A stretch of 64,000 nt of DNA. Source: Pseudomonadaceae bacterium SI-3. GTDB taxonomy: Bacteria > Pseudomonadota > Gammaproteobacteria > Pseudomonadales > Pseudomonadaceae. The stretch lies in the NCBI GenBank assembly GCA_004010935.1, contig CP026511.1, positions 4,092,001 to 4,156,000 on the forward strand, read 5' to 3'. Shown here in pieces: positions 33,006-60,309 of the stretch (position 1 is the stretch's first letter; each line of letters begins with the position of its first letter). Under the pieces are notes generated by a model. It was not told the origin of the DNA, did no database searches, and was given only the letters and a program-made list of their open reading frames with translations. Position numbers and translations under genes: made by a program.

Positions 33006-33617
33006 TCAATGGCCGACGAAGCGATTGTCCAGATACTCCAGAATCTCGTTGACCACCTCCGGAAGGTTCCGGTCCAGGGTCTCCAACCGGATCTCCGGGC
33101 TCAGCGGCGCCTCGTAGGCGGAGTCGATCCCCGTGAAATTCTTGATCAGCCCCGCGCGCGCCTTGCCATACAGGCCCTTCGGGTCTCGACGCTCGCATTC
33201 GGCCAGTGGTGTATCGACGAATACTTCGATAAAGGCGTCACTACCAATGATGGTACGCGCCAAGTCTCGATCAGCTCGAAACGGCGATATGAACGCGGTG
33301 ATCACGATCAGCCCGGCATCCACAAACAGCCGTCCCAGCTCAGCGATCCGGCGGATATTCTCCTCCCGATCCGCATCGCTGAAGCCCAGGTCGCGACACA
33401 AGCCCATCCGCACGTTATCCCCATCGAGCAGATAGGTATGACGCCCGCGCTCGACAAGCGCGACCTCCAACGCGTTGGCAATGCTGGATTTACCTGCCGC
33501 ACTGAGCCCGGTGAGCCAGATGGCGGCGGGCGTCTGGCTTTTCAACCGCGCTCGTGTATTGGCGTCGACGTCTACCCGCTGCTGCACGACGTCCGAATTC
33601 CCGTTTTTCATGCTCAT
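33006..33617 (-). CDS. cysC: adenylylsulfate (APS) kinase
   Basis: A 203-residue stand-alone APS kinase that makes PAPS, the sulfate donor for sulfotransferases. The P-loop is GLSAAGKSS (37-45). Other family blocks are [36 protein letters not shown] and [12 protein letters not shown]. In pseudomonads APS kinase usually occurs as a CysN-CysC fusion, so a separate cysC beside polysaccharide genes suggests dedicated PAPS supply (inference). The ATG overlaps the gspE stop (ATGA) and has AGGA upstream, so it is translationally coupled to a secretion gene. Confidence 0.94.
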
Positions 33618-37523: not shown

Positions 37524-37527
37524 CCGT

Positions 37528-44670: not shown

Positions 44671-44747
44671 TGCCGCTCGTTCCCTTCCGGAAGAGAGCGA
44701 GCACCCGTAAACGGCAGGTGAAAGGACGGTTCGAAGGACTTCGAACC
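44671..44747 (+). promoter_or_regulatory. structured 5' leader of the S-layer-like gene
   Basis: Nested complementary segments: TGCCG (44671-44675) with CGGCA (44712-44716); GCTCG (44675-44679) with CGAGC (44698-44702), enclosing TTCCGGAA. Then comes a perfect 9-bp stem GGTTCGAAG-GA-CTTCGAACC (44728-44747), 28 bp before the ATG. It could be an mRNA-stabilising leader or an operator-like palindrome. I do not recognise a known riboswitch. Confidence 0.6.
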
Positions 44748-44775
44748 AACACAACATTTGGAGTGACTCCGCATC

Positions 44776-46191
44776 ATGAAAAAGACACTACTCGCCCTGG
44801 CAGTTTCTGCCCTGAGCATCAACGCATTCGCAGCTAACGTTGACTTCACCGCTGCCTCGCCAGCCGTAAATACCATCGCAACCGAGCTGTCCCTGCCGGC
44901 AAGCAACCTTGTCACCACTGCGGACACCTTGACTTGGGATCTGGGCTTCTCGGTTACCACCGCGACCCAGCGTTACATCAAAGTTTCCCTGACAAATGGT
45001 GCTAAGTTCACGAACGCCCCAGGCGTCACAGCTGGCGCTGCTGCTGGCGCGCTCTCCCAAGGCGGCGCAGGCCAGAGCTTCGTTATCATGGAAGTCACTC
45101 CAGCCGCAAACTTGGCACCGACTGATGATGTCGTCCTAACCCTGAATAACCTAACCCTGACTGGCAAAAACGAAGTCGGCGTTAGCTACCAGCTTTTCGA
45201 GACCGCTGTTGATGCCGTCAATGGCACCAACGCACTGGTTAACGTAGCTGCCAAGCCTTACATCAAATTCGGCACTGGCCTGGTTGCTACCTTCCAGCCT
45301 TTCAGCGTTCAGCGCGTAATCGATGTTGCGGCTAACCCCACGTCCACCGCTTTCACTGGCGCCCTGGATGCCAACAGCGCCAAGATCGGCGCGGTCGCGA
45401 TCGACGCAGTTCCAAGCTTGGTCAACTACAGCATGGCGCCCGTTACTCTTGCCAGCCTCGTAGGTGCAGGCACCGCGCTGGAAGTCGAAGGCGACTTCTC
45501 TGCAGGCCTGAAAACTGCTGGCGCGCTGGTCCCAGCTGCTGTGAAGCTTGCCGGTGATGCAACTGACGCTACTGGCACTCCGGCCAGCTCGCTGACTTCG
45601 ACCAAGGCCACATTCGTAATCGACGCAACAGTGCTAGGCAACCCGGCCACTCCAGCTTATGTTGACGTTGTTTACCACGTTGCCGGCGGCGCAGCCAACA
45701 CCATCGCACCGTCCAGCTACACCGCTAACTACAAGGTCGTTCCGGCTGCTAACACTACTACTGCTGGCGTGAACATCGGCAAGATTGGTGAGCTGGCCAA
45801 GAACGGCGCTTCCCAGTACGTTGACCTCGCTCTGAAGCCGGGCGGCGCTTACGAGAACTTCGTTCGTATCTCCAACAAGACCAACGTTGCCGGTAATGTT
45901 TACATCACCGTCATCGCTGACAATGGTGCCCAGCAGACCATCAACCTGAGCGACATCGCTGGTCAGTCCGCGTCCCTGGCTGCCCGTTCCTCCACCACTC
46001 AGATCAGCGTCAAGCAGATCTTCGACGCTGCCGCCGCCAAAGGGCTGGTATTGGCCGGTGAGGGCAAGCTGCGCCTACTGGTTGATGGTGAGTTCCCGGC
46101 TACCGGCACCACCACCAATGCCAACGATTACGGCCTGAGCGTTCAGAGCTACACCGTTGCCAAAGACGGCAACAGCTTCGCCACTTTCTAA
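44776..46191 (+). CDS. abundant secreted protein, S-layer-like composition
   Basis: 471 residues. A Sec signal peptide (MKKTLLALAVSALSINAFA) is followed by an Ala/Thr/Val/Asn-rich, strand-rich mature protein with no Cys, a single Trp and very few His or Met. The sequence ends in Phe (SFATF). Codons are strongly biased toward those of highly expressed genes. The ribosome binding site is strong (GGAGTGA), and a strong terminator follows. I recognise no named domain. Composition, expression signals and position directly after the secretion operon suggest a surface or S-layer-like substrate of that system (inference). An outer-membrane barrel is the main alternative because of the terminal Phe. 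Confidence 0.65.
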   Translation: MKKTLLALAVSALSINAFAANVDFTAASPAVNTIATELSLPASNLVTTADTLTWDLGFSVTTATQRYIKVSLTNGAKFTNAPGVTAGAAAGALSQGGAGQSFVIMEVTPAANLAPTDDVVLTLNNLTLTGKNEVGVSYQLFETAVDAVNGTNALVNVAAKPYIKFGTGLVATFQPFSVQRVIDVAANPTSTAFTGALDANSAKIGAVAIDAVPSLVNYSMAPVTLASLVGAGTALEVEGDFSAGLKTAGALVPAAVKLAGDATDATGTPASSLTSTKATFVIDATVLGNPATPAYVDVVYHVAGGAANTIAPSSYTANYKVVPAANTTTAGVNIGKIGELAKNGASQYVDLALKPGGAYENFVRISNKTNVAGNVYITVIADNGAQQTINLSDIAGQSASLAARSSTTQISVKQIFDAAAAKGLVLAGEGKLRLLVDGEFPATGTTTNANDYGLSVQSYTVAKDGNSFATF

Positions 46192-46220
46192 GCTTTATTT
46201 GAAAGCGGTTTAGCTGGATG

Positions 46221-46251
46221 AAAGGGCAGCCCACGGGCTGCCCTTTTCTTT
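46221..46251 (+). terminator. intrinsic terminator of the S-layer-like gene
   Basis: A 12-bp stem, AAAGGGCAGCCC-AC-GGGCTGCCCTTT, is followed by TCTTTG, 30 bp after the stop. This is a strong rho-independent terminator and makes the secreted-protein gene a single-gene unit. Confidence 0.92.
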
Positions 46252-46383
46252 GTCTGTAACCGACAGCTATCGCACCAACGACTCATATCGTAACGTCCCG
46301 TACACCGCTGCTGATGCGCACCATGGTTTAATAGTTTCCGACCAAGCCTGATACTACGGCGCCCGTACCAGATCGAAACGCAG

Positions 46384-47451
46384 ATGACGACTCCTTCATC
46401 ACCGACTGCTCGTAAGCTTCCCGCTGCCGACGGAATACGCGGCGCTGCCTGTCTTATAGTGCTGGTCATGCATGGCCTGAGCTTTTGCTGGCCGCAAATA
46501 TTTCCTGAGCTTAGGGGCGGTGGTAAGTATGGCGTCTGGCTGTTCTTCGTGCTCAGCGCCTTTCTGCTTACCCTGCGCTTGCAACAAAAAGGGTTCGGCG
46601 TCGGCAATCTTGTCGATTACGCCCTGGGCCGCAGCCTGCGCATCCTGCCCCTCTATGCACTGGCGTGCCTGTTCTATTTCGCAGTTGGCCACGGCATTCA
46701 GACCACCGAGCAACTGTGGTCAGCCCTGACTTTCCAGCAAGGCTTTATCCACCTCTGGACCATTCCGGTGGAGTTCAAGTTTTATCTGTTATTGCCACCG
46801 CTTGCGTGGGCCGGACTGGCGCTGCAACGGCGCCTCGGCAGCGCAGGCTCGCTGATCGGGGCGGTCGCTTTGCTAGTTGCGCAACAAGCACTCTGGCCCT
46901 ATTGGGCGACGCCTGAGAGTTCAGCCAATACGCGCTGGTACATTCCGTCCTTTCTTTTTGGCATCCTGGCAGCTCTACTGCTGCCGGCAATGCGCAGTCT
47001 GCCCCGACATAGGCTGGCTACGCCCTCTGCGCTGTTTACCCTGGGCGTATTGTGCTTGGCACTTCCCGGCGCTCGGCTATGGCTGTTCGGGACGCCCCTA
47101 AGCGGTGACCTTCTGGACAAGCATCTGTACCTCAGCCTGCTCTGGGCTGTTTTCGTCCTGCTGCTGGTAGACGGCGACGGAATCGTGGGGCGATGGCTGT
47201 GTAGCCGTCCGATGGCGTTTCTCGGCGCCATCAGCTATTCAGCCTACCTATTCCACTTGCTTGTCATGCTGCCCATAACCACACGCTGGCCAGAGCAACC
47301 AGCAGCGTTTGCCGCGTCCATCATTCTTTCCGTTGCGGCCGGAGCATTGGGCTACTACCTGGCCGAACGCCCGCTTGAACAGGCGCGCAAGCGAATGGCA
47401 GGGTCATTCCAGCGGGCAAGCCGGAGTGAGTCACAATCGCCATCCAATTAA
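46384..47451 (+). CDS. acyltransferase 3 family membrane protein
   Basis: 355 residues with about ten membrane segments. The acyltransferase-3 start is visible (ADGIRGAACLIVLVMHG, with the family's conserved Arg and His), as is KYGVWLFFVLSAFLL. Such proteins O-acetylate cell-surface sugars, often O-antigen (OafA-like), but the C-terminal SGNH domain is absent. The neighbouring O-polysaccharide genes make an O-acetyltransferase role likely (inference). It faces the end of the giant glycosyltransferase gene. Confidence 0.85.
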   Translation: MTTPSSPTARKLPAADGIRGAACLIVLVMHGLSFCWPQIFPELRGGGKYGVWLFFVLSAFLLTLRLQQKGFGVGNLVDYALGRSLRILPLYALACLFYFAVGHGIQTTEQLWSALTFQQGFIHLWTIPVEFKFYLLLPPLAWAGLALQRRLGSAGSLIGAVALLVAQQALWPYWATPESSANTRWYIPSFLFGILAALLLPAMRSLPRHRLATPSALFTLGVLCLALPGARLWLFGTPLSGDLLDKHLYLSLLWAVFVLLLVDGDGIVGRWLCSRPMAFLGAISYSAYLFHLLVMLPITTRWPEQPAAFAASIILSVAAGALGYYLAERPLEQARKRMAGSFQRASRSESQSPSN

Positions 47452-47796: not shown

Positions 47797-50700
47797 TCAA
47801 CTGGGCAAGGTGCTTCGTAGCCTGGTAATACGCTCCTCACAGACTACATAGTGATCGCTTTGAAGCAGCGTCTGCCGCTGTTGTTCGTCATGTATTGCCA
47901 GCGTATGGGCATCACTGCCGCCGACCCGATGAATATAGTCGCCAATGAACTCGCAGTTACGTAACGAAGCCCAGTCGGTATCGTGGCGGTTGAACAACTG
48001 CAATGTCAGGTAGTAGTCCTCCATGAACTTCATGTCTTCGTGATAGTGAAGCCGGCCAAGATCTATCTTGTCCAGATTCAGCATGAAGCTATGGAGCGGC
48101 GCATGGTTAAGCCGAATGAACTCTTCGTACGAAAACCCGTATTCATAGGTTCGATCCCGTTTGAGGATCATGCCGGTCAGTGCGTCCACGCTGGTGGCAT
48201 ACACCCGCCCAAAGGTCGCGTTCTTGCCACTGGTTTGCAGTCTGCCAAGCAAGCTTCGATACGCCTCGGGAAACAACAGGTCGTCATAATCCAGAAATGC
48301 TGCATACCCTTTTCCCACCGACTTGAGCGACTCGTTAAGCATCAACGAGCGCAGGTCTGGGTTACTTTCACTCGAGTAGTAAGGGCGAATGATCGGCTCG
48401 CAGCCTGCAGCCCATGGTACCCGCGACAGTTCCTCACCAAGCCGGCTCAGATCGTCCTCATCCAGATCCTGCACCGCAAGGTGCAATTTGACCTTGCAGT
48501 CGACCTGAGTCACAAGCGACAGCATTGCATTGGCAAGCAGATCCAGGCTGGCATTCCGATGGAAACGGATCACCGTCGAAACCGTAGGCAGGACTTCACC
48601 TGACGCTGCTTCGCCTGGCAAGAGGCGGAAGCAGGCGGCTTTGCATGCAACCTTGTAACCCTTGAGGTTGTTGAAGTCCTTTGCAACCTCCATCCCGGCA
48701 CGCTTCCAGAAGCCAACATCAAAATTGGTCGACGTCGGATCGTGAAGAAAAGCAGGATCGTTGAGCACGCTGGGAGATACGGCAAAGCCGGGATGACGTA
48801 GCGCCATCAGCAGCAGCGACTCGATGCACGTCGCGGGGAACAGGTACAGCTGATTGAAACGCAGCGTGTAGGCGGCTGGCGCTTGAGCCTCGTCGATACA
48901 GCGTATGCCTTTTTCACCTAGGGCAGCGGCAAGCGATGCGTCGCTTGTAGCGACACCACATCTCTGGAACAGCGCTGACGAGGCCAGACAGTGAATGAAT
49001 TTGCGCCGCGCCTCGCCATCTTCAGCGAGCTGTCGACCTACCTCATCCGCCAGGTCGATGCGAACCAGCATATCCGAGCGAAGTTGAGGCTCGAGATAGT
49101 GGGTGTCGTTGAAGCCATAATTACTCAGTGCCCGACCGATCGAGTTCAGATAACCGTAGCCGAAGCGGGTATCCGGCTCGAGATGCGCGCCCTCGGCCCA
49201 CTCGTTCCAAGCGTTCACCACCACGAAACGACGATCCGCAGGCAACTCCTTCACGGAGTACTGTATCAAGTGCTCAAGCCATTCCTGGAACTTACCGGTG
49301 GTGAAGCGATGCAACAGTATCGCCTCGGTGCCATAACGAGCGGTGTTGTCCCAGGTCGGAACCAGCGAACGGAACAGGACGTAATCGTTGTCCAGCTGCT
49401 TGTGCATATAGTGGTCGGCGACCTCCGAGTAATCCAGCACACTGCCGTTGATCGGGCCGTAAGGATTCAACTCATGACGGATATCGGCTACCGCACCACC
49501 TGTCCAATCATGAAGGACACGCTCTACGGCTGCATCCATGCCGTAATGGGCCGGCGATACGGCACCGCGGGTCAGCGTCGCGACCACGTACGGCGCAGGC
49601 ACGTCGTTTCGCTCGCACTCTTCCCGCCAGATTCGTAAATAATCTTCCACATGCTCCATGGCCGATGGACGATAGACAAACAGTACTGGCCGACCCTCGA
49701 CCTTGATGTATCGCCGGTCCTTGAAGAACGGGACCATATAGCGGATGAAGGCGAGTGCGTCTTCAGGGGAGTAAACCTGACCGAGCAGGATTTCCTTCTC
49801 GTTACCGTCCCAGCGACGTGTCCAGTTCTCGTTGGCCCAGCAGAAGCTGAAGGGCATATCGATGTCCGGGTTATCCAGCAGCATCTGTGCCGGCTTTTCC
49901 AGGATCAGTTTTCCGGAGAACCAGTAATGGTAGAAGATCAGTCCATTGACCCCCGCCTGGCGCATCATGTCAGCCTGTAAAGCGAGCTGCTGGGGCGAAT
50001 CCAGATGGTAATAGCCTAGATCCGGGTGAGGAATATGCTGCTGATAGTGCCCTTCGAATAGAGGGTTCGCTGCCGCGACTTTGTGCCACTCGGTGAAGCC
50101 TTTCCCGTGCCACGCGTCATTCTCTGGCGTCGGGTGGAACTGCGGCAGGTAGTAGGCCAGCACCTTGATGCTGTCATGCACCAACTCAGCCGAAAAGTCG
50201 TGCTGATCTTCGTAATACTGTTGTGGCTCACGAGAGAGCGCCTGGGATTCGATACGGTAGTTGCGCCCTTCGTGCAAGGTGCTAAATACCAATATCAGCC
50301 GCTCCAGGGCATGCGCCAGCGTCGCATCCGCCGCGATCGGCTCTTCCGCAAAGTCGTTGTAGTCAAGCGGCAACGACAGAAATTCGCGCAGAGCGGCGCC
50401 TTTACCCCAGAACATGCTGCCTTGGGGAAATTCCGTCTTGTCGAAGTCGGCCATGTCCAACTTGGTGTGCCGACGCAAAAGTGCTTTTGCAATGTCCTGA
50501 TTGTCACTCCAACCACTGCTGTCCCAATGAGCGACGTGATCGCCTGCTGGATAAACGACCTTCGCGTCGCCACCGAACAGATTCAATATCTGCGAAACGC
50601 CCGAACGGCTTCCACATAGCGAACTCATGATTTCGCCGAACCAGCCTTCCAAACTTTCTCTATGAGGGCTTTTTTTCGTATGGAAATGTGCGATTACATC

Positions 50701-52815
50701 GTAATCGGCAAGCGTTTTTCCAAACTGAATCACGAGCGGGGCAAGGTCACGCCCACGATTGGGCACACGCTCCACGACAACCTGGCGAACCTGAGGGAGT
50801 TTCGACTTGAAGGTTGATTCCCAGTCATGGCTCGCCTGATGTTCAGGTATGGAGATATACAGGTCGAAAGATAAAGGGATATTTCCCAGATACTCCAGGC
50901 ACTCGTCCGCCATGTCTTCATAGAACAGGTGCAGGTGAATGCCGACACTCAATGTCGGGAGCAAAATATCATCTTGCTGGTAGGGGTTCAGGTAGTACGG
51001 AACGACCTTGTAAAGGCTGTACTCCTCTGAGCTCGACGGCACTAAGCCGCTGCTGACTGTGTATTCGGAAGCCGGCGCAACCGGCTGATGTGTCTTCGAG
51101 CGAACCAGCCCGATAGCATGGCGAACCCCTCCCCGACGAGCCTCGACGACGAACTTGCCAGCAAGCCTTGGTTCGTCCATCAGTAGCCGAGCCAGGCGGA
51201 CCCCTTTTTCGGCGGCAGTACGGCGAGGCACTGGCCGAGCACTTCCCCCGGCTACGGTAGGCACCATGCGGCCTTCCCGGTAACCGTGGCGCAGGTAATG
51301 CACCAGCGGATTGATATCTAACAGCCGCACGTCCGGATATCGCTCCAGATAACCGTTTACAGAGAATGACGCGGCAGGGTTTCGCCCCTCTTTCCATCCA
51401 AACTCGACGAAATGGTCAAACGGGTCCATTCCCGCTTCGACCACATCCGGGTAGGCCTGCCGATAGTAGCTAGCGTCAAACAGGCCACTCTGCATGAGCT
51501 GACGGCGAAGATGCTTGTTGCGAAGCTCAGCCAGGCCAGCCCGGTTGGCCAATGCACGTATGAGATGTTTGAGCGCCACGCGTCCGGAACGGGATACGTT
51601 CAAGGCATGTTCTAAACGCTGGATGTTCTCAAGCTTGTCACTCAACGAGGAATCCAGTCTTTGTATTTCCGCGTAGCTAGAATGCTGAACCCGCTGAAGT
51701 TCGTCCGCTTGTTCGGATAGCGATTGTTTCAGGCGATATACCTGCGACTGCTGCTCATCTTTCTCCTCGGCCAGTCGCATGATCTCGGCCTCGCTCTTGC
51801 GAGACAACTCAGTCAACTGCCCCGCAAGCGCGGTGGCCTCCTGCTGCGCCGCCGAGAGAGCGGCCCTCGCCTCATTGGCCTGCGCAGCCAGATTGGCCGA
51901 GATGGTTTCGGCTTCGTCCAGCCTCAAGGCCAGGTTGCGGCCTTTATCTTCAAGCGAATAGAGCAGCCGATAGGCAGGGTAACGCCCCATCATTGCCGTA
52001 TAGAGCGCCTCGATCCGCGCAACGACTTCGTCGCCATCCTCGCGCCTGCCATCGGTTAGCTCACACAGCAGCTCATGAAGCTGTTGTGCATCTGCGGTCA
52101 CAGCGGCATCCAGGCGCAAATCTTCCGGGCCGAAGGCGGTATGGCGCAGAGAACGCTCAAGGAATTCGTGCTGGTATTCGATGCAGTCCTGGCTTTGCGT
52201 AGAAAACGGCAAACCAAGCGAAGTGGAGATACGCTCAAGCTGAACCAAGGGTTCACCGAGTAGCTGATCGTAGTCGACGAATACGCGCCGGCCATTCGCG
52301 GTGTGCTTGATGGAAAGCAGCATGTGTTCGAGCCACAGGAGATAGCTCTTCTCCAGCGCGAAACCGTTTCTTCTGGCCAACGAGTGGGCGACGCTCATCG
52401 GGTTGCGACAGGCGATTACGAAACTGACGTCTAGCTTGAGATGAGCAAACACGTCAACCCAGAACGGCATGAGGCGACACATGCGAGGGTCTTTCAAGCC
52501 GAAGATTGTGGTGTCGGCCAGTTTGTCACGTAGCAGCTGAACAGCTCGTAACTTGAGTGCTTCAACTTCCGGACGCTCGAATTCCTGCGGCGTCAGGGGG
52601 GCCAGCGTATGCCAGTCGTGCCCCATTTCCGCCAGAAGATCGACATCGAAAGCAGTGATATCGATATCTTCCCAGAAGCCTTTCTCGTTATTGCCCGTCT
52701 CAGCTTGCAAGAGGCGGTTGCCAAGATCGACGCCCAGCACCTGCAAACCTCTGGTTATGGCGCTTGTCCCACTGCGGTGCATCCCCAGCACGACGACTAT
52801 ACGTTTCTGCTCCAT
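47797..52815 (-). CDS. giant multidomain surface-polysaccharide protein: sulfotransferase + RgpF + WbsX + GT-A
   Basis: 1672 residues from ATG 52815. (1) ~1-270 is sulfotransferase-like: GMHRSGTSA (11-19) fits the 5' PAPS loop and CRNPMSVAHS (136-145) the 3'-phosphate motif. (2) ~287-415 is a coiled coil. (3) ~445-520 has two repeats of the FDxxYYxxxYPDV...HYLRHGYREGR type. (4) ~617-870 resembles rhamnan-synthesis protein F (RgpF; NRGRDLAPLV, AHFHTKKS). (5) ~881-1235 resembles WbsX (AYYLPQFHPTPEND, FCWANENW). (6) ~1407-1672 is a GT2/GT-A domain with FLDYDDLLFPE. It starts 3 bp past the wzt stop and closes the O-polysaccharide operon. An in-frame ATG at 52920 would place the start inside wzt. 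Confidence 0.85.
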   Translation of the reverse strand: MEQKRIVVVLGMHRSGTSAITRGLQVLGVDLGNRLLQAETGNNEKGFWEDIDITAFDVDLLAEMGHDWHTLAPLTPQEFERPEVEALKLRAVQLLRDKLADTTIFGLKDPRMCRLMPFWVDVFAHLKLDVSFVIACRNPMSVAHSLARRNGFALEKSYLLWLEHMLLSIKHTANGRRVFVDYDQLLGEPLVQLERISTSLGLPFSTQSQDCIEYQHEFLERSLRHTAFGPEDLRLDAAVTADAQQLHELLCELTDGRREDGDEVVARIEALYTAMMGRYPAYRLLYSLEDKGRNLALRLDEAETISANLAAQANEARAALSAAQQEATALAGQLTELSRKSEAEIMRLAEEKDEQQSQVYRLKQSLSEQADELQRVQHSSYAEIQRLDSSLSDKLENIQRLEHALNVSRSGRVALKHLIRALANRAGLAELRNKHLRRQLMQSGLFDASYYRQAYPDVVEAGMDPFDHFVEFGWKEGRNPAASFSVNGYLERYPDVRLLDINPLVHYLRHGYREGRMVPTVAGGSARPVPRRTAAEKGVRLARLLMDEPRLAGKFVVEARRGGVRHAIGLVRSKTHQPVAPASEYTVSSGLVPSSSEEYSLYKVVPYYLNPYQQDDILLPTLSVGIHLHLFYEDMADECLEYLGNIPLSFDLYISIPEHQASHDWESTFKSKLPQVRQVVVERVPNRGRDLAPLVIQFGKTLADYDVIAHFHTKKSPHRESLEGWFGEIMSSLCGSRSGVSQILNLFGGDAKVVYPAGDHVAHWDSSGWSDNQDIAKALLRRHTKLDMADFDKTEFPQGSMFWGKGAALREFLSLPLDYNDFAEEPIAADATLAHALERLILVFSTLHEGRNYRIESQALSREPQQYYEDQHDFSAELVHDSIKVLAYYLPQFHPTPENDAWHGKGFTEWHKVAAANPLFEGHYQQHIPHPDLGYYHLDSPQQLALQADMMRQAGVNGLIFYHYWFSGKLILEKPAQMLLDNPDIDMPFSFCWANENWTRRWDGNEKEILLGQVYSPEDALAFIRYMVPFFKDRRYIKVEGRPVLFVYRPSAMEHVEDYLRIWREECERNDVPAPYVVATLTRGAVSPAHYGMDAAVERVLHDWTGGAVADIRHELNPYGPINGSVLDYSEVADHYMHKQLDNDYVLFRSLVPTWDNTARYGTEAILLHRFTTGKFQEWLEHLIQYSVKELPADRRFVVVNAWNEWAEGAHLEPDTRFGYGYLNSIGRALSNYGFNDTHYLEPQLRSDMLVRIDLADEVGRQLAEDGEARRKFIHCLASSALFQRCGVATSDASLAAALGEKGIRCIDEAQAPAAYTLRFNQLYLFPATCIESLLLMALRHPGFAVSPSVLNDPAFLHDPTSTNFDVGFWKRAGMEVAKDFNNLKGYKVACKAACFRLLPGEAASGEVLPTVSTVIRFHRNASLDLLANAMLSLVTQVDCKVKLHLAVQDLDEDDLSRLGEELSRVPWAAGCEPIIRPYYSSESNPDLRSLMLNESLKSVGKGYAAFLDYDDLLFPEAYRSLLGRLQTSGKNATFGRVYATSVDALTGMILKRDRTYEYGFSYEEFIRLNHAPLHSFMLNLDKIDLGRLHYHEDMKFMEDYYLTLQLFNRHDTDWASLRNCEFIGDYIHRVGGSDAHTLAIHDEQQRQTLLQSDHYVVCEERITRLRSTLPS

Positions 52816-52817: not shown

Positions 52818-54185
52818 TCAATCTTCTTCGATGTTCTTGAGTGTAAGGTCCGACACGCAGTTGAAATCTACTGTCCCAGTCGCCATGTTGTCGCCGATAG
52901 GCAAGACACGGAAAAGGCATGCGTCCAGCAGCCGGTGAAGATATGTTTCACTTTCTCCTACCGTGCCGGTAACGCCTGCGTTTAAAAAGTAGGTGCCGGG
53001 GTTCAGCCGGCATTGGAAACTGAACTCGACCTGGGCAACAGATCCTTTCCTGACAAGACCGACAGCACCCTGAAGATTCGCCGCGCTTACCGAACCACCC
53101 AGTTCGACGCCACCAGGCGTTTTGATCATCATCCCGAATCGAACCGCGGTGGCGCCCTTCTCGAACCGCACCTGGTAGGTATAACGGTACGTGTCGCCGC
53201 GCTTGAGACAATTTACGGGCTCGCCTGTGCGGTCGACGAGCTGCGGTCGCTCGATCCATGCCCCATGCGACTCGTAAGACAGCACGCTTTGAGAGATGAG
53301 GTGGGGATCATAAAAAGCATCCATGTCCTCTGAATCGAGGTCCTGTGTCGCTCTGGACACATTCGAAATTGCAACTTCGGACCCGCCTGCATCTTTGACT
53401 TCTCCGCCAGAAATGATCTCTTGCCTGATACTCGCAACCTTTTCTCGCGGGGCATAGAGCAACTTCTGATACTTGCCGATAATGCTTTTAGGAGCGCCTT
53501 CAATAAGCTTCTCGCCACTGTCAAGCAGCATGGCCCTATCGCATAACTCCACCACCGCACTTCCCGAATGCGATACAAACAGGATGGTGGCGCCGCTTTC
53601 CTTGATTGCTTCGATCCGAGCGAAACATTTCCTTTGGAACAATTCATCGCCGACCGAAAGGGCCTCGTCGACAATGAGTATCTGCGGCTCGACATTGATT
53701 GCCACAGCGAATGCAAGGCGGACCATCATTCCACTGGAATAGGTTTTTACTGCCTGATCGATGAATTCGCCGATTTCTGCAAACGCCTCGATCTCACTGA
53801 AACGCGCATCGGTTTCCTCGCGACTCAAGCCGAGAACGGCTGCGTTCATATAGACGTTTTCACGCCCGCTGAACTCTGGGTTGAACCCAGACCCAAGCTC
53901 GAGTAGTGCGGCGATCCGTCCATTAGTGGTAATGGTCCCATGGGTAGGGTTAAGCGTGCCGCAGACCAACTGAAGCAGTGTTGATTTACCGCTCCCGTTG
54001 CGCCCAACGATCCCGACCGTCTCGCCTTTGCGTATATCAAAGGAAACGGCGTTCAGCGCCCAGAACTCTCTGAAATACTGCTTTCGATCTCGCGCCAGCA
54101 TCTGAAAAAGGCGATCGCGAGGCTTGTCATAGATATGGAAACACTTGCTCAGGTCATGCACGGAAATAGCAAGTTCAGAGGACAT
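52818..54185 (-). CDS. wzt: O-polysaccharide ABC exporter ATPase Wzt
   Basis: 455 residues. An ABC ATPase domain (~1-245) has Walker A GRNGSGKST, signature YSSGMMVRLAFA and Walker B ILIVDEAL, plus SHSG at the H-loop. A C-terminal beta-sandwich (~300-455) resembles Wzt carbohydrate-binding domains, which recognise the chain-end cap of the finished polymer. ATG 54185 is preferred; it overlaps wzm by 11 bp. Presence of the binding domain implies a modified terminal sugar, and the next gene's sulfotransferase module could supply it (inference). Confidence 0.93.
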   Translation of the reverse strand: MSSELAISVHDLSKCFHIYDKPRDRLFQMLARDRKQYFREFWALNAVSFDIRKGETVGIVGRNGSGKSTLLQLVCGTLNPTHGTITTNGRIAALLELGSGFNPEFSGRENVYMNAAVLGLSREETDARFSEIEAFAEIGEFIDQAVKTYSSGMMVRLAFAVAINVEPQILIVDEALSVGDELFQRKCFARIEAIKESGATILFVSHSGSAVVELCDRAMLLDSGEKLIEGAPKSIIGKYQKLLYAPREKVASIRQEIISGGEVKDAGGSEVAISNVSRATQDLDSEDMDAFYDPHLISQSVLSYESHGAWIERPQLVDRTGEPVNCLKRGDTYRYTYQVRFEKGATAVRFGMMIKTPGGVELGGSVSAANLQGAVGLVRKGSVAQVEFSFQCRLNPGTYFLNAGVTGTVGESETYLHRLLDACLFRVLPIGDNMATGTVDFNCVSDLTLKNIEED

Positions 54186-54993
54186 CGGCGAAGCCCTTAC
54201 GTGTCTTTTGAAACCACGCGAAACCCATATAAAAGAATAACAAGGCAGCGGCGTAGTGTTTTGCCATTCCCAACCAATTGGGCGTCTCTCCGAGAAAAAG
54301 AAGCCCTCGAACCGCTTCAATAGCAGGCGTCAGAGGATTGATAGAGAGCAGGTGCCGGTATTCTTCTGGCAAAGCTGTTATCGGATAGAAGATCGGAGAG
54401 AGAAACATCAGCACCGATGTAAGCAACCCGATGAACTGCCCAACATCACGAAGAAAAACACCTATCGAAGCGAGAAACCAGACAAGCCCAAGTATGAATA
54501 ACATCAGAGGCAACAAGACGACAGGCAGCAGAAGCGCGGTTGCATGGATGTCACTGAAAAGTACGGCGTAAACAAGCAACCAGACACTAAGACTTACCAG
54601 AAAATGAAAAAGCGCAGATCCCATCACCACAAATGGCAATATCTCCAACGGAAACACGACCTTTTTTACATAATTAGTATTGGCAATGATGAGGTTAGGC
54701 GCACGCGTTACACAGTCGGCGAACAGATTGAATACGATCAGCCCTGCGAACAGCATCAAGGCAAATTCTGTTTTTGACTCGTTTGCTACGCTCCAGCGTG
54801 CCTGGAATACGACGCTGAACACGAACGTATAGACAGCCAGCATAAAAAGGGGGTTAAAGAACGACCACAACAATCCCATGATGGATCCGTGGTAACGCCC
54901 TATGACCTCCCGCTTGGAAAGCGCCAATATGAGCGAGCGGTTGCGGTAGAAACTGGCAGCCGCCTCACGTGGAGACAGTGAGAAGTGCTGCAT
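54175..54993 (-). CDS. wzm: O-polysaccharide ABC exporter permease Wzm
   Basis: A 272-residue ABC-2 type permease with six hydrophobic segments. The family segment SIMGLLWSFFNPLFMLAVYTFVF is near the N-terminus (split here as IMGLLWSFFNPLFML). It moves undecaprenyl-linked O-polysaccharide across the inner membrane with Wzt. Its stop overlaps wzt and its start overlaps the rfbC stop, so the four genes are translationally coupled. Confidence 0.94.
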   Translation of the reverse strand: MQHFSLSPREAAASFYRNRSLILALSKREVIGRYHGSIMGLLWSFFNPLFMLAVYTFVFSVVFQARWSVANESKTEFALMLFAGLIVFNLFADCVTRAPNLIIANTNYVKKVVFPLEILPFVVMGSALFHFLVSLSVWLLVYAVLFSDIHATALLLPVVLLPLMLFILGLVWFLASIGVFLRDVGQFIGLLTSVLMFLSPIFYPITALPEEYRHLLSINPLTPAIEAVRGLLFLGETPNWLGMAKHYAAALLFFYMGFAWFQKTRKGFADVL

Positions 54994-55538
54994 CAGTCGA
55001 ACACCTCGGCGTCGCGAAAGGCATCCCCGGCGCTGTCTTTTGCTGAAAGGGACGGTGTGAGGTCAACAGGCCAGTCGATTGCCAGATCCCCGTCGCTCCA
55101 GATGATGGAGCGTTCATACTCAGGTGCGTAGTAATTCGTAGTCTTGTAGAGAAACTCGGCGGTTTCCGAAAGCACAACGAAGCCATGGGCAAAGCCTTCC
55201 GGCACCCAAAGTTGGTGCTTGTTCTCGGCACTGAGAATGACGCCTACCCACTGACCAAAGGTCGACGAGCTGCGGCGGATATCCACGGCCACATCGAATA
55301 CTTCGCCCTGGACGACACGCACCAGCTTGCCCTGCGGCTGTTGTACCTGGTAATGCAGCCCGCGCAGCACGTTTTTCACTGAGCGGGAGTGGTTGTCCTG
55401 AACAAAGGAGACGGCCCGACCCACCGCCTCCTCGAACTGGCGCTGATTGAAGCTCTCGAAGAAAAAGCCGCGCTCGTCCCCGAACACACGCGGTTCCAGC
55501 AGAAGTACCTCGGGGATCGCCTGGGGGATCGCCTTCAT
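54993..55538 (-). CDS. rfbC: dTDP-4-dehydrorhamnose 3,5-epimerase
   Basis: A 181-residue cupin enzyme, third step of dTDP-L-rhamnose synthesis. LRGLHYQ holds the catalytic His, and WVPEGFAHGFVVLS and EVFDVAVDIRRSS are standard. ATG 55538 gives the normal length; the longer frame would add 43 unrelated residues and would overlap rfbA. The start abuts the rfbA stop. Confidence 0.97.
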   Translation of the reverse strand: MKAIPQAIPEVLLLEPRVFGDERGFFFESFNQRQFEEAVGRAVSFVQDNHSRSVKNVLRGLHYQVQQPQGKLVRVVQGEVFDVAVDIRRSSSTFGQWVGVILSAENKHQLWVPEGFAHGFVVLSETAEFLYKTTNYYAPEYERSIIWSDGDLAIDWPVDLTPSLSAKDSAGDAFRDAEVFD

Positions 55539-56419
55539 CAATACACCCGCTCCGTCAGCAAACGCTTGAGGTACTTGCCATAGCCGTTCTTCGACAGCGG
55601 CTCGGCAAGCCGCTCGAGCTGCTGAGCATCGATCCACTGATTGCGGTAGGCAATCTCTTCCGGACAAGCGACCTTGAGCCCCTGACGTCGTTCCAGCGTT
55701 TCGATGAACTGTCCAGCCTCAAGTAGGGATTCGTGCGTGCCGGTGTCGAGCCAGGCGTAGCCACGCCCCATGATCTCCACGCTGAGCGTGCCCTGTTCCA
55801 GATAGGCCCGGTTCACATCGGTGATTTCCAGTTCGCCGCGCGCGGAAGGCTTGATGCGCTTGGCAATTTCGACCACCTGGTTGTCATAGAAATACAGCCC
55901 GGTAACGGCGTAGCTGGACTTGGGCTGCACCGGTTTTTCTTCGAGGCTGACCGCACGGGCCTGATCATCGAACTCGACCACGCCGTAACGCTCAGGGTCA
56001 TGCACGTGATAGGCGAAAACGCTCGCACCCTGTTCCCGCAGCGTGGCGTTGTGCAGCAGGTCGGCGAAATCATGCCCGTGGAAGATATTGTCACCCAGCA
56101 CCAGCGCGCAGTGATGCCCATCGAGGAACGTCTCTCCGATAAGGAAGGCTTGCGCGAGGCCGTCCGGCGAGTCCTGCACGGCATATGAGAGCTCCAGCCC
56201 CCACTGCGTGCCATCACCCAGTAGCTGCTGGAAGCGTGGCGTGTCCTGTGGGGTGGAGATGATCAGGATTTCCCTGATACCGGCAAGCATCAACGTGCTC
56301 AACGGGTAATAAACCATCGGCTTGTCGAACACGGGCAGTAGCTGCTTGGAAACCGCGAGGGTCGCAGGGTGCAGACGGGTGCCGGAGCCACCGGCCAGAA
56401 TGATGCCTTTGCGCTTCAT
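55538..56419 (-). CDS. rfbA: glucose-1-phosphate thymidylyltransferase
   Basis: A 293-residue nucleotidyltransferase, first step of dTDP-L-rhamnose synthesis (dTTP + Glc-1-P). The signature [20 protein letters not shown] (nucleotide and metal binding) and VLGDNIFHG are intact; length is normal. It sits 6 bp after rfbD and abuts rfbC. Together rfbB, D, A and C provide a complete rhamnose donor pathway in one transcript. Confidence 0.97.
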
Positions 56420-56425: not shown

Positions 56426-57415
56426 TCAAGGCCGTCGGGTGGCCAGTGCAATATGGGAAGGGGATTCGGAACGCTGTAGCGCCTGGTCGAGATGCTCGTT
56501 CGCCACTCTGGCGGCCACCTCCACCGGTACGACTTCATGCAGCATGCGCTCGGCATGCTCCTGCCAATGGGGCAGTTGAAGATCAAAGGTGGATCGCAGC
56601 TTGCGTGTGTCCAGTAACGAACTGGCCGGACGCGCCGCAGCCGCCGGGAACTCGGCGGCACGGATCGGCAGAATGCGCGCATCCTCGACCCTGAACTTCA
56701 TACCCAGGCCTCGCGCCGTGCGAATGATGAAACGGGTGAACTCATGCCAGCTGGTCTGCCCGCCCGCCACCAGGTGATAGGTGCCATAGGCCTGTACTGC
56801 GAAGTCGGGATCATGCCGCAGGCGCTGGATCATCAGTGCGCTGACGTCAGCAATCAGCTCGGCGCTGGTGGGCGCACCGACCTGATCGACCACGACGTTC
56901 AGCTCGTCGCGCTCGCAGGCAAGGCGCAGCATGGTCTTGGCGAAGTTGCGTCCACGGCAGGCGTATACCCAACTGGTCCGCAATATCAGATGGCGGCATC
57001 CCGAGGCCTTGATCAGCCGCTCGCCCTGCAGCTTGGTTCTGCCGTATACATTCAAAGGCGCGGTTGGCCCGTCCTCACGCTGAAACCCAATCGCGGTGCC
57101 ATCGAATACATAGTCAGTCGAGTAATGGACCAGCAGTGCATCCAGTTCCTTGGCGAGTGCGGCCAGCTCGCCAGCGGACGTGGCGTTGACCAACGCTGCA
57201 CCCGCCTCGTCGGTTTCCGCCTTGTCCACGGCCGTGTAGGCTGCGGCATTGACGATGACATCAGGTCGGCACTGGCGCAGCAGCGGTGCCAGGGTTTCCG
57301 GTCGTGACAGATCGGCTCGCTGGCGATCGCAGGCAATGACTTCACCCAGCGGCGCCAGCGCACGTCGTAGCTCCCAGCCCACCTGGCCGTTTGCGCCAAG
57401 CAAAAGGATCTTCAT
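56426..57415 (-). CDS. rfbD: dTDP-4-dehydrorhamnose reductase
   Basis: 329 residues from ATG 57415. An SDR with GANGQVGWELRR at the N-terminus and the catalytic YxxxK (YGRTK) in NVYGRTKLQGERL. It reduces the final keto intermediate to dTDP-L-rhamnose. The C-terminal ~27 residues (after HWQEHAERMLHE) extend beyond the usual ~300-residue family length and are of unknown meaning. It overlaps rfbB by 4 bp. Confidence 0.95.
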   Translation of the reverse strand: MKILLLGANGQVGWELRRALAPLGEVIACDRQRADLSRPETLAPLLRQCRPDVIVNAAAYTAVDKAETDEAGAALVNATSAGELAALAKELDALLVHYSTDYVFDGTAIGFQREDGPTAPLNVYGRTKLQGERLIKASGCRHLILRTSWVYACRGRNFAKTMLRLACERDELNVVVDQVGAPTSAELIADVSALMIQRLRHDPDFAVQAYGTYHLVAGGQTSWHEFTRFIIRTARGLGMKFRVEDARILPIRAAEFPAAAARPASSLLDTRKLRSTFDLQLPHWQEHAERMLHEVVPVEVAARVANEHLDQALQRSESPSHIALATRRP

Positions 57416-58470
57416 TGGTACTGCCTGCTGACCCACTCTCGGTAGGCGCCACTAGTGATGTGAGTGACCCAGTCCTGGTTGTCCAGGTACCAACGCACGG
57501 TTTTGCGGATGCCGCTCTCGAAGGTTTCAGCCGGCGACCAACCCAGTTCCCTGCAGATCTTGCTCGCGTCCACTGCGTAGCGGCGGTCATGCCCGGGCCG
57601 GTCCTTGATGAACACGATGGCATCACGATAACTCTGTCCGTCAGCTCGCGGACTTTCCTGGTCGAGGATGTCACACAGGGTGGTCACCACTTGCAGGTTC
57701 GTTTTCTCGTTGCAGCCACCCACGTTGTAAGTTTCGCCCGGTGTGCCTGCTTCGAGCACGCGGCGAATGGCCGCGCAGTGATCCTTGACATAGAGCCAGT
57801 CCCGCACTTGCTGGCCGTCTCCATAAATTGGCAGCGGTTTGCCGGAGAGCGCGTTATGGATGACGAGTGGAATAAGCTTTTCGGGGAAATGATAAGGGCC
57901 GTAATTATTCGAGCAGTTGGTGGTCAGCACTGGCAGCCCGTAGGTGTGGTGATAGGCACGGACGAAATGGTCCGACGCGGCCTTCGAGGCCGAATAGGGG
58001 CTGTTCGGCTCGTACTTTTTTTCTTCGCAGAATGCTGGGTCGGTGGGCTCGAGCGAGCCATAGACCTCATCGGTCGAGACGTGCAGGAAGCGAAAGGCGC
58101 TTGCCTGGTCTTCCGACAGGGATCGGTAGTACCCAAGCGCGGCTTCCAACAGGCGGAAAGTGCCGACGACGTTGGTCTGCACGAATTCCTCCGGGCCGTC
58201 GATCGACCGGTCTACATGGGATTCGGCAGCGAAGTTGATGATCGCGCGGGGCCTGTGCTCCTGCAGGAGATCAGCAAGCTGCTGCTTGTCCGTGATATCA
58301 CCCTGGACGAACTGATGGCGACTGTCGCTTTCGAGGCCCTTCAGGTTTGCCAGGTTACCGGCATAGGTCAGCTTGTCGAGGCTGATGACAGGCTCATCGC
58401 CAACAGCCAGCCAGTCCAGGACAAAATTCGCCCCGATGAAACCGGCGCTGCCGGTCACAAGAATGGTCAT
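57412..58470 (-). CDS. rfbB: dTDP-glucose 4,6-dehydratase
   Basis: A 352-residue SDR, second step of dTDP-rhamnose synthesis. It has NAD motif GSAGFIGANF, catalytic YSASK, and TDEVYGSL; length and blocks are normal. It follows the GT2 gene by 3 bp, so the whole operon from 59445 to 47797 is probably one transcript. Confidence 0.97.
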   Translation of the reverse strand: MTILVTGSAGFIGANFVLDWLAVGDEPVISLDKLTYAGNLANLKGLESDSRHQFVQGDITDKQQLADLLQEHRPRAIINFAAESHVDRSIDGPEEFVQTNVVGTFRLLEAALGYYRSLSEDQASAFRFLHVSTDEVYGSLEPTDPAFCEEKKYEPNSPYSASKAASDHFVRAYHHTYGLPVLTTNCSNNYGPYHFPEKLIPLVIHNALSGKPLPIYGDGQQVRDWLYVKDHCAAIRRVLEAGTPGETYNVGGCNEKTNLQVVTTLCDILDQESPRADGQSYRDAIVFIKDRPGHDRRYAVDASKICRELGWSPAETFESGIRKTVRWYLDNQDWVTHITSGAYREWVSRQYQ

Positions 58471-58473: not shown

Positions 58474-59445
58474 TCAGATTCTCCGGATGCTGGCAGCGAT
58501 GATCAGGCCAACGGTACCAAAGCCCGTCTGGCGATAAACTCCAGCTTTCTTGAGCAAATAGAGGCGCCGCAACAGGTTTGCGTCTCGCGCCGCCTCGAAA
58601 CGGGCGAGCGCAACCCCGCTGCGTTCGTCAAGCAGCCCTGCGCAAGTGCGCAACGCCGTAAGATTTTTCTCAGTCCATTCGCGAAACGTTCCGCCGAACA
58701 TCATGCGTACCCGGGTAAGCCGATCGCGCATGGAGTTGTTCGAGCCAATCAGGTTTCCACCATGCTGGCGATAGTTCAGCGTCGGCTCAGCATCGTAGAA
58801 CACGTGACCACCGCAGCCGCTAACCAGCAAGTAGCAAAGCCAGTCATGGGATACGACCGGAGCTGTCGGCGGGACCCTGGCCAACAGAGTACGGGCCGCC
58901 TTGTTCAGCACCATGGTGTTAGCGCCGGCCAGGCTTTGAACAAGCGCGTTCTTGAAGCTAGGTGCCCGTGCGAACAGCGGCGAATGGCCAATAAAGCTAC
59001 CCCCTTCGTCGATCAGCCGCGTTCTGGAGCAATAAACTGCTGGACTTTTTGCACTCGTGCAGGCAATCCGAGTGATCGCCCTTTGAAGCTTGTCCGGGAA
59101 CCAGACATCGTCTTGGTCGCAGAAGGAGAAGAAATCCGCTTCGATCTCGGGGTTGCGCACCAGTGAGAGGAAGTTCTGTGCAAAACCGATACGAGGCCCG
59201 TGAAGCAAGCGCACCCGATCCGACCCCAGGCGTTGCTGAAACCGCTTGATTATGACCAGCGTGGAATCCGACGATCCATCGTCCGAAATATAAAGCGTCC
59301 ACTGGCGATGAGTCTGTTGGGCGATCGAGCTCAGCTGCTCGTCGAGGAAGCGCGCACCGTTATAAGTGGTGAGCAGGATCGCCACATGCAGGCCGGCCTC
59401 ACCTGCGGCCAGGGAGCTCGGCGGACTGACATTGGTGGAACTCAT
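58474..59445 (-). CDS. GT2-family glycosyltransferase (rhamnosyltransferase-like)
   Basis: 323 residues from ATG 59445. GT-A fold: ILLTTYNGARFLDEQLSSI and the DDG/DxD region (ISDDGSSD), with FCDQDDVWFPDKL. Similar to O-antigen rhamnosyltransferases, but the acceptor cannot be predicted. A TTG at 59466 would add seven residues. It is the first gene of the O-polysaccharide operon; its promoter must lie in the 59446-60309 spacer. Confidence 0.88.
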   Translation of the reverse strand: MSSTNVSPPSSLAAGEAGLHVAILLTTYNGARFLDEQLSSIAQQTHRQWTLYISDDGSSDSTLVIIKRFQQRLGSDRVRLLHGPRIGFAQNFLSLVRNPEIEADFFSFCDQDDVWFPDKLQRAITRIACTSAKSPAVYCSRTRLIDEGGSFIGHSPLFARAPSFKNALVQSLAGANTMVLNKAARTLLARVPPTAPVVSHDWLCYLLVSGCGGHVFYDAEPTLNYRQHGGNLIGSNNSMRDRLTRVRMMFGGTFREWTEKNLTALRTCAGLLDERSGVALARFEAARDANLLRRLYLLKKAGVYRQTGFGTVGLIIAASIRRI

Positions 59446-60309
59446 TAAAGGAAAGCTACCTCGCAAACATCCGTGTTGTTAGTCATAGGCAATGCATCGC
59501 ACCGATCGAATCGACTCAAGCCAGCATCGACACGTGCCTTGCAGGCTTGGCCTACCCCGAGGCTCTCGGACTATCGAAAGCTGTCTGATGCCATCTCCAA
59601 CCCATACAGGCTGCCCGCTAAAGGAGTAGAAGCGCACCACCCGAAAGCCCTTAGGCTAAGGGCGGCTATTAGAGGGCGCGTATTCTACAAAAGTTTCTGC
59701 AAATTGCTGCGCTTTATCGTGGGTGAGGTATATATCCGACGGGCGACAACTGGGGCCTGGCTTCGACAGACAGCAAGTAGCTGCTTTGTGCTCGGCAGCC
59801 CGGCTTGGCCAGGAAAACTCGATGTGGGCGTCAACACCCTTACGCAGGTATGGGGGTTCCAACACTCGACGCGATTACCCTTTGGAATGGGCCTTCGCCA
59901 CGTATCAAGCGAATCTTGCCACCCATCCTGGTCGGCATATACCGAGTAGCCTCCTAACGAGTTGGCTTTCGTCCGCATTTAATAGCGTCGACCGGCAAGC
60001 TCAACGTAACCTCCCGCACGGCCTGTGTTGCTGAATCTATGCGCATGGTTTGCATCGCACCACCATACGACCGCATCAGGCGTAACTGGCGATGAATCGC
60101 CATCGCTACAGCGACGAGACGATGCCCTGGAGTCTGTAAAGCAGTCCTGGGATCGATCGATGCTGAAGGCCCAGATCAGAACCGTGCCTTATCCTGCAAC
60201 GCGCCTACGATAAGTTTCTGCCGACCCTGGCGGCTGTTGGTGCGACTCGGATGATTAGGCTCGCCGTACAAGGCGCGCAAGACCGCGAACAGAGCGCAGA
60301 ATCATCGGG
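59446..60309. other. intergenic spacer upstream of the O-polysaccharide operon
   Basis: 864 bp with no supported gene. It should contain the promoter for the minus-strand operon. One TAGAAT hexamer (minus strand, about 59689-59694) is a possible -10, with no good -35. A perfect 7-bp stem, TGGCGAT-GA-ATCGCCA, lies at 60087-60102. No ops/JUMPstart (GGCGGTAGC) was found. A short open stretch at ~60188-60315 on the plus strand (LQRAYDKFLPTLAAVG...) may be a gene remnant, but I cannot name it. Confidence 0.6.

What the first reader, a model, noticed from the sequence alone, without database searches (positions are those of the whole stretch)
47797..52815. Giant fusion: sulfotransferase, coiled coil, RgpF, WbsX and GT-A in one 1672-residue protein
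One ORF joins a PAPS-type sulfotransferase module to a ~130-residue coiled coil, a repeat module, a RgpF-like domain, a WbsX-like domain and a GT2 domain. It immediately follows wzt, whose C-terminal domain should recognise a chain-end modification. The coiled coil could act as a molecular ruler that sets chain length between the capping module and the polymerising modules, as described for WbdA/WbdD-type systems. The architecture suggests one polypeptide that extends, measures and caps an ABC-exported polymer.
Basis: partly seen in the sequence, partly recalled or inferred. Interest (0 to 1): 0.72.

Follow-up and report, generated by a model that had tools for sequence, protein, structure and literature searches.

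The report
Sulfate-capping sugar-chain polymerase with ruler
One large bacterial protein appears to build a surface sugar chain, measure it with a coiled coil and finish its tip with a sulfate that the chain's exporter recognises; sulfate would be a new finishing mark for this known kind of machine, and a neighbouring protein coat may hold on to that tip.

Summary
The ORF is real: 1672 codons, unbroken, minus strand 52815-47797, two bases after wzt. Domains by profile or fold: sulfotransferase (1-257), one continuous helix (279-405), repeat module, RgpF, WbsX, GT-A. This is the known polymerase-terminator plan (WbdD, WbbB, Klebsiella O7), but with a sulfotransferase as cap enzyme instead of methyl, methylphosphate or Kdo. 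New evidence: (1) related fusions swap the cap between sulfotransferase and methyltransferases on one core, and the Wzt C-terminal domain follows the cap (5 of 5 independent pairs); (2) in a tree of 53 labelled Wzt C-domains one supported branch unites the 41 from loci with a sulfotransferase (several families, fused or separate) apart from 12 with methyltransferases; (3) APS kinase (PAPS supply) lies in 11 of 16 sulfotransferase loci, 0 of 22 others, and in this window; (4) cap-to-repeat spacing varies in steps of seven. So sulfate is most likely the chain-end export signal and the coil a ruler; nothing was assayed, and some loci break the rule. An S-layer gene with its own secretion system shares the island: the sulfated tip may anchor the S-layer (speculative). 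New variant of a known kind.

The parts
47797..52815 (-). the fusion gene, 1672 codons plus stop
   Evidence: single contig
52045..52815 (-). residues 1-257: PAPS-type sulfotransferase (cap) module; GMHRSGTS 11-18, KDPR 108-111, R137 and S145
   Evidence: AF2 model and PDB alignment; conserved columns; residues checked
51601..51981 (-). residues 279-405: one continuous helix, coiled-coil spacer (putative ruler)
   Evidence: heptad-step length variation
51241..51498 (-). residues 440-525: repeat module of two YPDV-type units
   Evidence: sequence; present in many homologues
50290..51006 (-). residues 604-842: RgpF domain (PF05045, profile positions 253-495)
49138..50163 (-). residues 885-1226: WbsX domain (PF14307)
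48616..49128 (-). residues 1230-1400: extra N-terminal part of the C-terminal module, fold not assigned
   Evidence: modelled; hardly covered by the alignments
47800..48591 (-). residues 1409-1672: GT-A (GT2-like) glycosyltransferase; DYDD 1509-1512, ED 1599-1600
52818..54185 (-). wzt, ATP-binding subunit of the exporter; Wzt_C about 52866-53279
   Evidence: start codon chosen by me
54175..54993 (-). wzm, permease (ABC2_membrane)
54993..55667 (-). rmlC (ORF as listed)
55538..56419 (-). rmlA
56426..57436 (-). rmlD (ORF as listed)
57412..58470 (-). rmlB
58474..59466 (-). GT2 glycosyltransferase
33006..33617 (-). APS kinase (PAPS supply), overlapping the end of the type II secretion ATPase gene by 4 bases
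   Evidence: PF01583 225 bits
33614..46191 (.). type II secretion genes (E 33614-35314 -, K 38350-39738 +, M 40663-41256 +, D 41662-43995 +) and Slr4-like S-layer protein 44776-46191 +
   Evidence: same set around G508
46384..47451 (+). acyltransferase family 3, between the S-layer gene and the fusion
   Evidence: conserved in L022 and G508

Best explanation
It is a single-chain polymerase-terminator for an O-polysaccharide exported by the Wzm-Wzt ABC transporter. The C-terminal modules (RgpF, WbsX, GT-A) extend a rhamnose-containing chain on its lipid carrier at the membrane; the ~19 nm coiled coil holds the N-terminal sulfotransferase away from them, so that only chains long enough reach it; the sulfotransferase moves sulfate from PAPS (supplied by the APS kinase in the same island) to the non-reducing end, which stops growth and makes the export tag; the C-terminal domain of Wzt binds that tag and admits the finished chain. 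Shown here by computation: module identities and order, exchange of cap modules on one core, Wzt_C type following cap type, linkage of PAPS supply, heptad-step spacer. Inferred: activity, end-specificity, the ruler function, the division of labour among the polymerising modules, and that the product is lipopolysaccharide.
Against: No assay; no chemical structure of this O-chain. The Pfam sulfotransferase score is below cut-off. The ATPase part of Wzt also follows the cap (4 label changes on its tree against 3 for the C-domain), so joint transfer of neighbouring genes explains part of the association. Sulfotransferase-cap loci L027, L032, L123 and L125 have, in reach, only Wzt-like proteins without a C-domain; methyltransferase-cap loci L043, L052, L053 and L055 have no Wzt with a C-domain in reach either. 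L173 and L197 have a close Wzt_C (125, 175 bits) but no sulfotransferase was found, in L197 on the whole 28.8-kb contig. In L167 and L169 the sulfotransferase is a match to my profile only (190, 180 bits), 5.5 and 2.3 kb from wzt, without a Pfam hit at 1e-5. An APS kinase also lies beside a remote-core fusion without a detected sulfotransferase, L122. Heptad periodicity of the window's own helix is modest (shuffle p 0.07 over 290-430, 0.006 over 360-425). WbsX chemistry is unsettled.
Confidence: 0.73

Rival explanations
1. The sulfotransferase decorates sugars along the chain or a side branch, not the end; the fusion only brings it close, and Wzt_C reads something else.
For: Repeat-unit sulfation of bacterial polysaccharides exists (recalled). 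In Aeromonas salmonicida a sulfotransferase-domain gene beside wzt had no matching sulfate in the known O-chain structure (PMC4483657, passages), so its role there is open.
Against: Its place is that of known terminators: far end of the coil, exchangeable for methyltransferases, beside a Wzt with a C-domain. Wzt_C, which in tested systems reads the chain end, follows it.
Confidence: 0.13
2. The cap module and Wzt agree only because neighbouring genes are inherited as a block; there is no recognition.
For: wzt lies directly beside the fusion in most sulfotransferase loci and the Wzt ATPase domain follows the cap almost as well as the C-domain (4 against 3 changes).
Against: The rule also holds where the sulfotransferase is a separate gene or some way off (L167, L169, L170, the first two by profile only), and for different sulfotransferase families and cores. 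At matched ATPase similarity (334-364 bits, all 14 such loci) Wzt_C scores 51-170 in 9 with sulfotransferases and 31-38 in 5 with methyltransferases.
Confidence: 0.1
3. The coil is an oligomerisation stalk without a measuring role.
For: Coiled coils oligomerise glycosyltransferases, e.g. LARGE1 (PMC9746966, passages); the ruler role is not tested here; spacer length varies widely (162-427 residues).
Against: Same topology as WbdD and WbbB, where coil length is reported to set chain length (PMC11231755, passages); spacers vary in whole heptads, though a mere stalk would show that too.
Confidence: 0.25
4. The sulfotransferase module is a degenerate remnant with no activity.
For: Low Pfam score.
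Against: Cofactor-site residues invariant among 25 sequences; simple patterns for KDPR and R-x-P-x5-S found in the first 330 residues of 94 of 94 homologues with an ST match above 100 bits, the loop pattern in 87 of 94; linked APS kinase.
Confidence: 0.04

Closest known systems
Klebsiella pneumoniae O7 ORF6 (PMC11231755)
   Same: N-terminal cap enzyme, coiled coil and polymerising GT modules in one chain, in a cluster with wzm-wzt; rhamnose-containing product
   Different: cap is a methyltransferase-kinase with a CBM; two GT2 modules; here a sulfotransferase, a YPDV repeat module, RgpF and WbsX
Klebsiella O12 WbbB and Aeromonas WbbB
   Same: polymerase and terminator in one polypeptide with a coiled coil (O12); Wzt C-domain reads the end (reported for O12)
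   Different: cap is a beta-Kdo transferase (GT99) in O12; polymerising modules are of other families
E. coli O9a/O8 WbdD-WbdA (PMC3482155, PMC11231755)
   Same: terminator, coil as ruler, end mark read by Wzt
   Different: methylphosphate or methyl cap; polymerase is a separate protein
Human LARGE1 with HNK-1ST (PMC9746966)
   Same: sulfation by a sulfotransferase ends growth of a linear polysaccharide
   Different: separate Golgi enzymes; no ABC export (recalled); the LARGE1 coil is a dimerisation stem
Aeromonas salmonicida wbsalmo / A-layer locus (PMC4483657)
   Same: rml genes, ABC exporter, S-layer gene with type II secretion genes, acetyltransferase family 3, sulfotransferase-domain gene right after wzt, giant multi-GT protein
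   Different: sulfotransferase is a separate 216-aa gene whose role was left open; WbbB-type polymerase. Sequences not compared here

Membership tests
ABC-dependent polymerase-terminator (WbdD/WbbB/O7 type) | cap enzyme at the far (N-terminal) end of a coiled coil, polymerising modules at the other end | tested here: met
   (module identities; activities not tested)
ABC-dependent polymerase-terminator (WbdD/WbbB/O7 type) | long coiled coil between cap and polymerase | tested here: met
   127-residue predicted helix; spacer lengths in heptad steps; oligomeric state unknown
ABC-dependent polymerase-terminator (WbdD/WbbB/O7 type) | Wzm-Wzt exporter with a C-terminal Wzt domain beside it | tested here: met
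   PF14524 103 bits
ABC-dependent polymerase-terminator (WbdD/WbbB/O7 type) | terminal modification is required for export and bound by Wzt_C | not testable with these tools
   indirect only: Wzt_C type follows cap type
ABC-dependent polymerase-terminator (WbdD/WbbB/O7 type) | coil length sets chain length | not testable with these tools
   -
ABC-dependent polymerase-terminator (WbdD/WbbB/O7 type) | cap chemistry is one of those described (methyl, methylphosphate, Kdo) | tested here: not met
   cap module has a sulfotransferase fold; hence a variant, not a plain member
PAPS-dependent sulfotransferases | sulfotransferase fold | tested here: met
PAPS-dependent sulfotransferases | 5'-phosphosulfate loop and 3'-phosphate Arg...Ser | tested here: met
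   GMHRSGTS 11-18, R137, S145; motif names recalled
PAPS-dependent sulfotransferases | Pfam Sulfotransfer_3 above curated cut-off | tested here: not met
   23.8 against 27 bits; a number of the listed homologues carry the precomputed PF13469
PAPS-dependent sulfotransferases | sulfate transfer from PAPS | not testable with these tools
   -
GT-A / GT2 glycosyltransferase (C-terminal module) | GT-A fold with DxD-like and catalytic acid residues | tested here: met
   in DYDD the three acids and in ED both residues are invariant in 22 sequences; roles of the motifs recalled

The most novel reading that the evidence does not exclude
Sulfate is a widespread but unrecognised end cap and export passport of ABC-exported polysaccharides: a whole clade of Wzt C-domains is specialised for sulfated chain ends, several sulfotransferase families serve as terminators, and in some S-layer bacteria (this one, Pseudomonas-family G508 and, by layout, Aeromonas salmonicida) the sulfated, possibly acylated tip is also the anchor to which the S-layer protein binds.
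Probability: 0.28. Interest if true: 0.86.

Novelty: new variant of a known kind. Interest (0 to 1): 0.72.

Why it matters
It would add sulfate to the short list of chain-end marks that tell a bacterium its surface polysaccharide is finished, and it gives a sequence rule (type of Wzt C-domain predicts type of cap) that can be tested in many genomes and would help predict O-chain ends, which are easily missed by chemical analysis because there is one per chain. It could explain sulfotransferase genes in O-antigen loci whose repeat units carry no sulfate. The shared island of S-layer gene, its secretion system, APS kinase and sulfate-capped polymer makes the open question of how Gram-negative S-layers are anchored directly testable in environmental strains.

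Tried and rejected
Looked for sequence relatives of WbsX and RgpF in the PDB: none up to E 1. The profile search of the N-terminal alignment in the PDB was swamped by coiled coils (one sulfotransferase among the rows shown, E 0.03); the fold search settled it. Considered an assembly or annotation fusion: rejected (near-identical full-length proteins in other collections). Considered that the agreement of cap and Wzt_C is only descent with the core: rejected by L120/L121 and by the tree.

Corrected on the way: in the Wzt_C tree L200 and L201 were first labelled methyltransferase and sat among the sulfotransferase rows (39 + 2); Pfam of the following genes then showed a Sulfotransfer_2 and a Sulfotransfer_3 gene there, so all 41 rows have one. 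Because that extra look was made at exceptions, I repeated it evenly with one set of cap profiles over the loci: no sulfotransferase profile hit in the 13 methyltransferase loci (the 12 of the tree plus L196). Those profiles for the less common sulfotransferases were built from members of the same set, and L040 matched no profile at all (its methyltransferase is). 13 Wzt rows without a clear label were left out of the tree (among them L173 and L197, with close Wzt_C and no sulfotransferase). The extra stretch fetched for L197 was not printed; one search shows no hit in it.

S-layer association: the Slr protein was found in 2 of 45 chosen genomes and only in the window's own genome among 274, so the sample is too small for a test. 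Against the anchor idea: the Aeromonas hydrophila O11 cluster, with the same kind of S-layer and secretion genes, lists no sulfotransferase gene (PMC4413209, passages). Other moduli for the spacer gave weak signals (6 and 4 in the full set, 10 in the smallest set); only 7 held in all three. REP-to-RgpF spacing gave signals at several moduli at once, and cap-to-RgpF spacing, over all forms, at most a weak one at 7 (p 0.03 below 65% identity).

Literature: ten searches. None of the listings and passages I saw describes a sulfate cap for an ABC-exported O-chain. Most hits were seen as listings only; the library lacks most subscription papers, and two that matter (the 2020 review on O-antigen length, the WbbB paper) are not held, so absence in print is not claimed.

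Full report
WHAT IS THERE. The gene is on the minus strand, 52815 to 47797, 1672 codons and a stop, in one open frame. Its ATG lies two bases after the stop of wzt, and upstream run wzm, rmlC, rmlA, rmlD, rmlB and a GT2 gene, all on the minus strand. The genome is one contig of 4.84 Mb with one match. Protein clusters 91-98% identical over the whole length from other collections exclude an assembly artefact. The gene is rare: none of the 55 other genomes of the genus searched had a full-length match, and of 398 genomes of the family (own included) 3 others matched at E 1e-120, one of them over the full length. The closest named relatives are Pseudomonadaceae, Stutzerimonas and Pseudomonas proteins mostly called 'glycoside hydrolase family 99-like'.

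THE COIL. The distance from a conserved position at the end of the cap (His in 60 of 65) to the repeat module runs from 162 to 427 residues, but clusters modulo 7: R 0.48 (n 65), 0.49 (n 41 below 80% identity), 0.56 (n 17 below 65%) with Rayleigh p 4e-7, 6e-5, 0.005; no other modulus tried holds in all three sets. A rerun with slightly different anchors (range 162-388) gave R 0.49, 0.51, 0.61. REP-to-RgpF and WbsX-to-GT-A intervals show no seven-specific signal, and RgpF-to-WbsX is fixed at 47-48 residues in 120 proteins. The sequences are related, so p values are optimistic. The window's own hydrophobic pattern is only moderately heptad-like.

CAP SWAPS AND Wzt_C. A scan of bacterial genomes found 137 relatives and kept 80 loci; I mapped 37 of them (L022-L058) gene by gene, and listed fusion and Wzt for all 80 and for 11 more regions. 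Ten N-termini without the sulfotransferase went through Pfam: nine are methyltransferases (five Methyltransf_24, four of the Methyltransf_11/12 group) and one is a GT2; L049 and L118 are methyltransferases too. On a tree of the core (39 rows: 17 with the sulfotransferase, 22 without) the cap changes 7 times, 5 of them forced by starred branches. 24 loci besides the window have a Wzt with a long C-terminal tail: against the window's C-domain the 14 with sulfotransferase caps score 133-228 bits, the 10 others 0-32. In 5 of 5 independent pairs Wzt_C goes with the cap (with five pairs the sign test cannot go below 0.0625). Left out of that count: L027 and L032 (sulfotransferase cap, Wzt without C-domain), L043, L052 and L053 (Wzt without C-domain), nine loci without a Wzt in reach, and L057 (broken core). 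L120 and L121 are telling: their cores are remote (WbsX 331 and 306 bits; no RgpF or GT-A match), yet they have the sulfotransferase cap and Wzt_C of 218 and 180 bits.

CONVERSE TEST. I searched the window's Wzt_C alone in 369 genomes of the class and 398 of the family and fetched all 38 places not yet held (L203 turned out to be the L024 locus). Of these 38, 13 have 100 bits or more: 11 have a sulfotransferase in the locus, L173 and L197 do not; in L167 and L169 it is a profile match without Pfam hit at 1e-5. 18 have 50-99 bits: 13 have one by Pfam or profile, four (L186, L187, L188, L199) have a shared unclassified protein that begins FIHSLFRxGSTxxF, which looks like a sulfotransferase loop but was not confirmed, and L189 is cut off after wzt. 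7 have less than 50: L201 has one, five have methyltransferases (L196 by similarity to L193), and L192 has the unclassified protein. In a tree of 53 labelled C-domains (13 unlabelled rows left out, L203 not included) one starred branch unites 41, all with a sulfotransferase in the locus after the correction told under Tried and rejected, and parts them from 12 with methyltransferases. The ATPase domain tree does almost as well (4 changes against 3), so block inheritance contributes; at matched ATPase similarity Wzt_C still differs (51-170 in 9 loci, 31-38 in 5, p 0.003).

PAPS SUPPLY. APS kinase (alone or as part of a longer protein) lies in 11 of 16 sulfotransferase-cap loci and 0 of 22 others with a similar core (Fisher 3.6e-6); with loci of at least 19 kb only, 11 of 16 against 0 of 15 (7e-5). 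Near-copies among Pseudomonas inflate this; in independent pairs it went with the cap in 3.9 of 5 on average, never against. In the Pseudomonas loci it is the next gene or the next but one. Among loci outside that comparison it is not confined to sulfotransferase caps: L122 and L173 have it without a detected sulfotransferase, and L199 beside the unclassified cap. In this window it lies at 33006-33617, at the end of the type II secretion ATPase gene; the genome has a second, longer copy elsewhere.

S-LAYER. Between the APS kinase and the fusion lie type II secretion genes, an Slr4-like S-layer protein and an acyltransferase. G508, whose Wzt_C is the closest found in the survey (245 bits), has the same set in a like arrangement: rml, wzm, wzt, a sulfotransferase fusion with another polymerase core, acyltransferase (527 bits), Slr homologue (170), secretion genes and APS kinase beside the ATPase gene. 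L022 has it up to its contig end, without the part where the APS kinase would be. Type II secretion genes also lie near the fusion in L027, L032 and L033, so in 4 of 16 sulfotransferase loci and 0 of 22 others. The Slr4 and NpdA papers describe the linked secretion genes; the term O-antigen occurs in neither text (PMC7821379, PMC10765051, passages). [quoted passage not shown] The A. hydrophila O11 S-layer cluster lists no sulfotransferase (PMC4413209, passages), which speaks against a general rule. A sulfated tip as anchor is my speculation.

KNOWN FRAME. PMC11231755 (outline and passages) sets out the polymerase-terminator model, the coil as ruler, the carbohydrate-binding module of Wzt that reads the end, and caps of methyl, methylphosphate and Kdo; the word sulfotransferase does not occur in its text. 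In mammals, matriglycan growth is ended by the sulfotransferase HNK-1ST (PMC9746966, passages), so sulfation can act as a stop. A phage-resistance study in Burkholderia gladioli reports mutations in a 'wbsX' O-antigen protein of at least 1346 residues and in Wzt (PMC13391952, passages); it may be a relative, which I did not test.

VERDICT. New variant of a known kind.

Noticed in passing
window 28010-47451: O-antigen and S-layer island: Polysacc_synt_2 (WbpM-like), Glycos_transf_4, SDR epimerase, TauE, APS kinase, type II secretion genes, Slr4-like S-layer protein, acyltransferase; the set from APS kinase to acyltransferase recurs in G508 beside a different polymerase core.
   Followed up: partly
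L186:10007-11890, L187:10111-11640, L188:10212-11543, L192:10366-12018, L199:10476-11699: Gene after wzt encodes one family without Pfam match (four scanned, L188 by similarity) that begins FIHSLFRxGSTxxF; possibly an undescribed sulfotransferase-type cap.
   Followed up: partly
L027, L032, L043, L052, L053, L123, L125: Cap-plus-core fusions (sulfotransferase or methyltransferase) whose only nearby Wzt lacks a C-domain: a cap without an obvious reader.
   Followed up: no
L047:8405-13186: A fusion in which the N-terminal module is a GT2 domain instead of a sulfotransferase or methyltransferase, with a long-tailed Wzt whose C-domain does not match the window's.
   Followed up: no
L200:6847-9767, L201:2765-4957: wzt followed by both a methyltransferase and a sulfotransferase gene, a possible two-step cap.
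   Followed up: no
window 35229-36869: ORF of 546 aa without Pfam match next to the secretion ATPase gene; parts conserved at the same place in G508 (165 and 223 bits).
   Followed up: no
window 62189-63160: IS110-type transposase beyond the rml end of the island.
   Followed up: no
fusion residues 440-525 and homologues: YPDV-type repeat module between coil and RgpF, absent in one branch of homologues and multiplied in P0075; function unknown.
   Followed up: no
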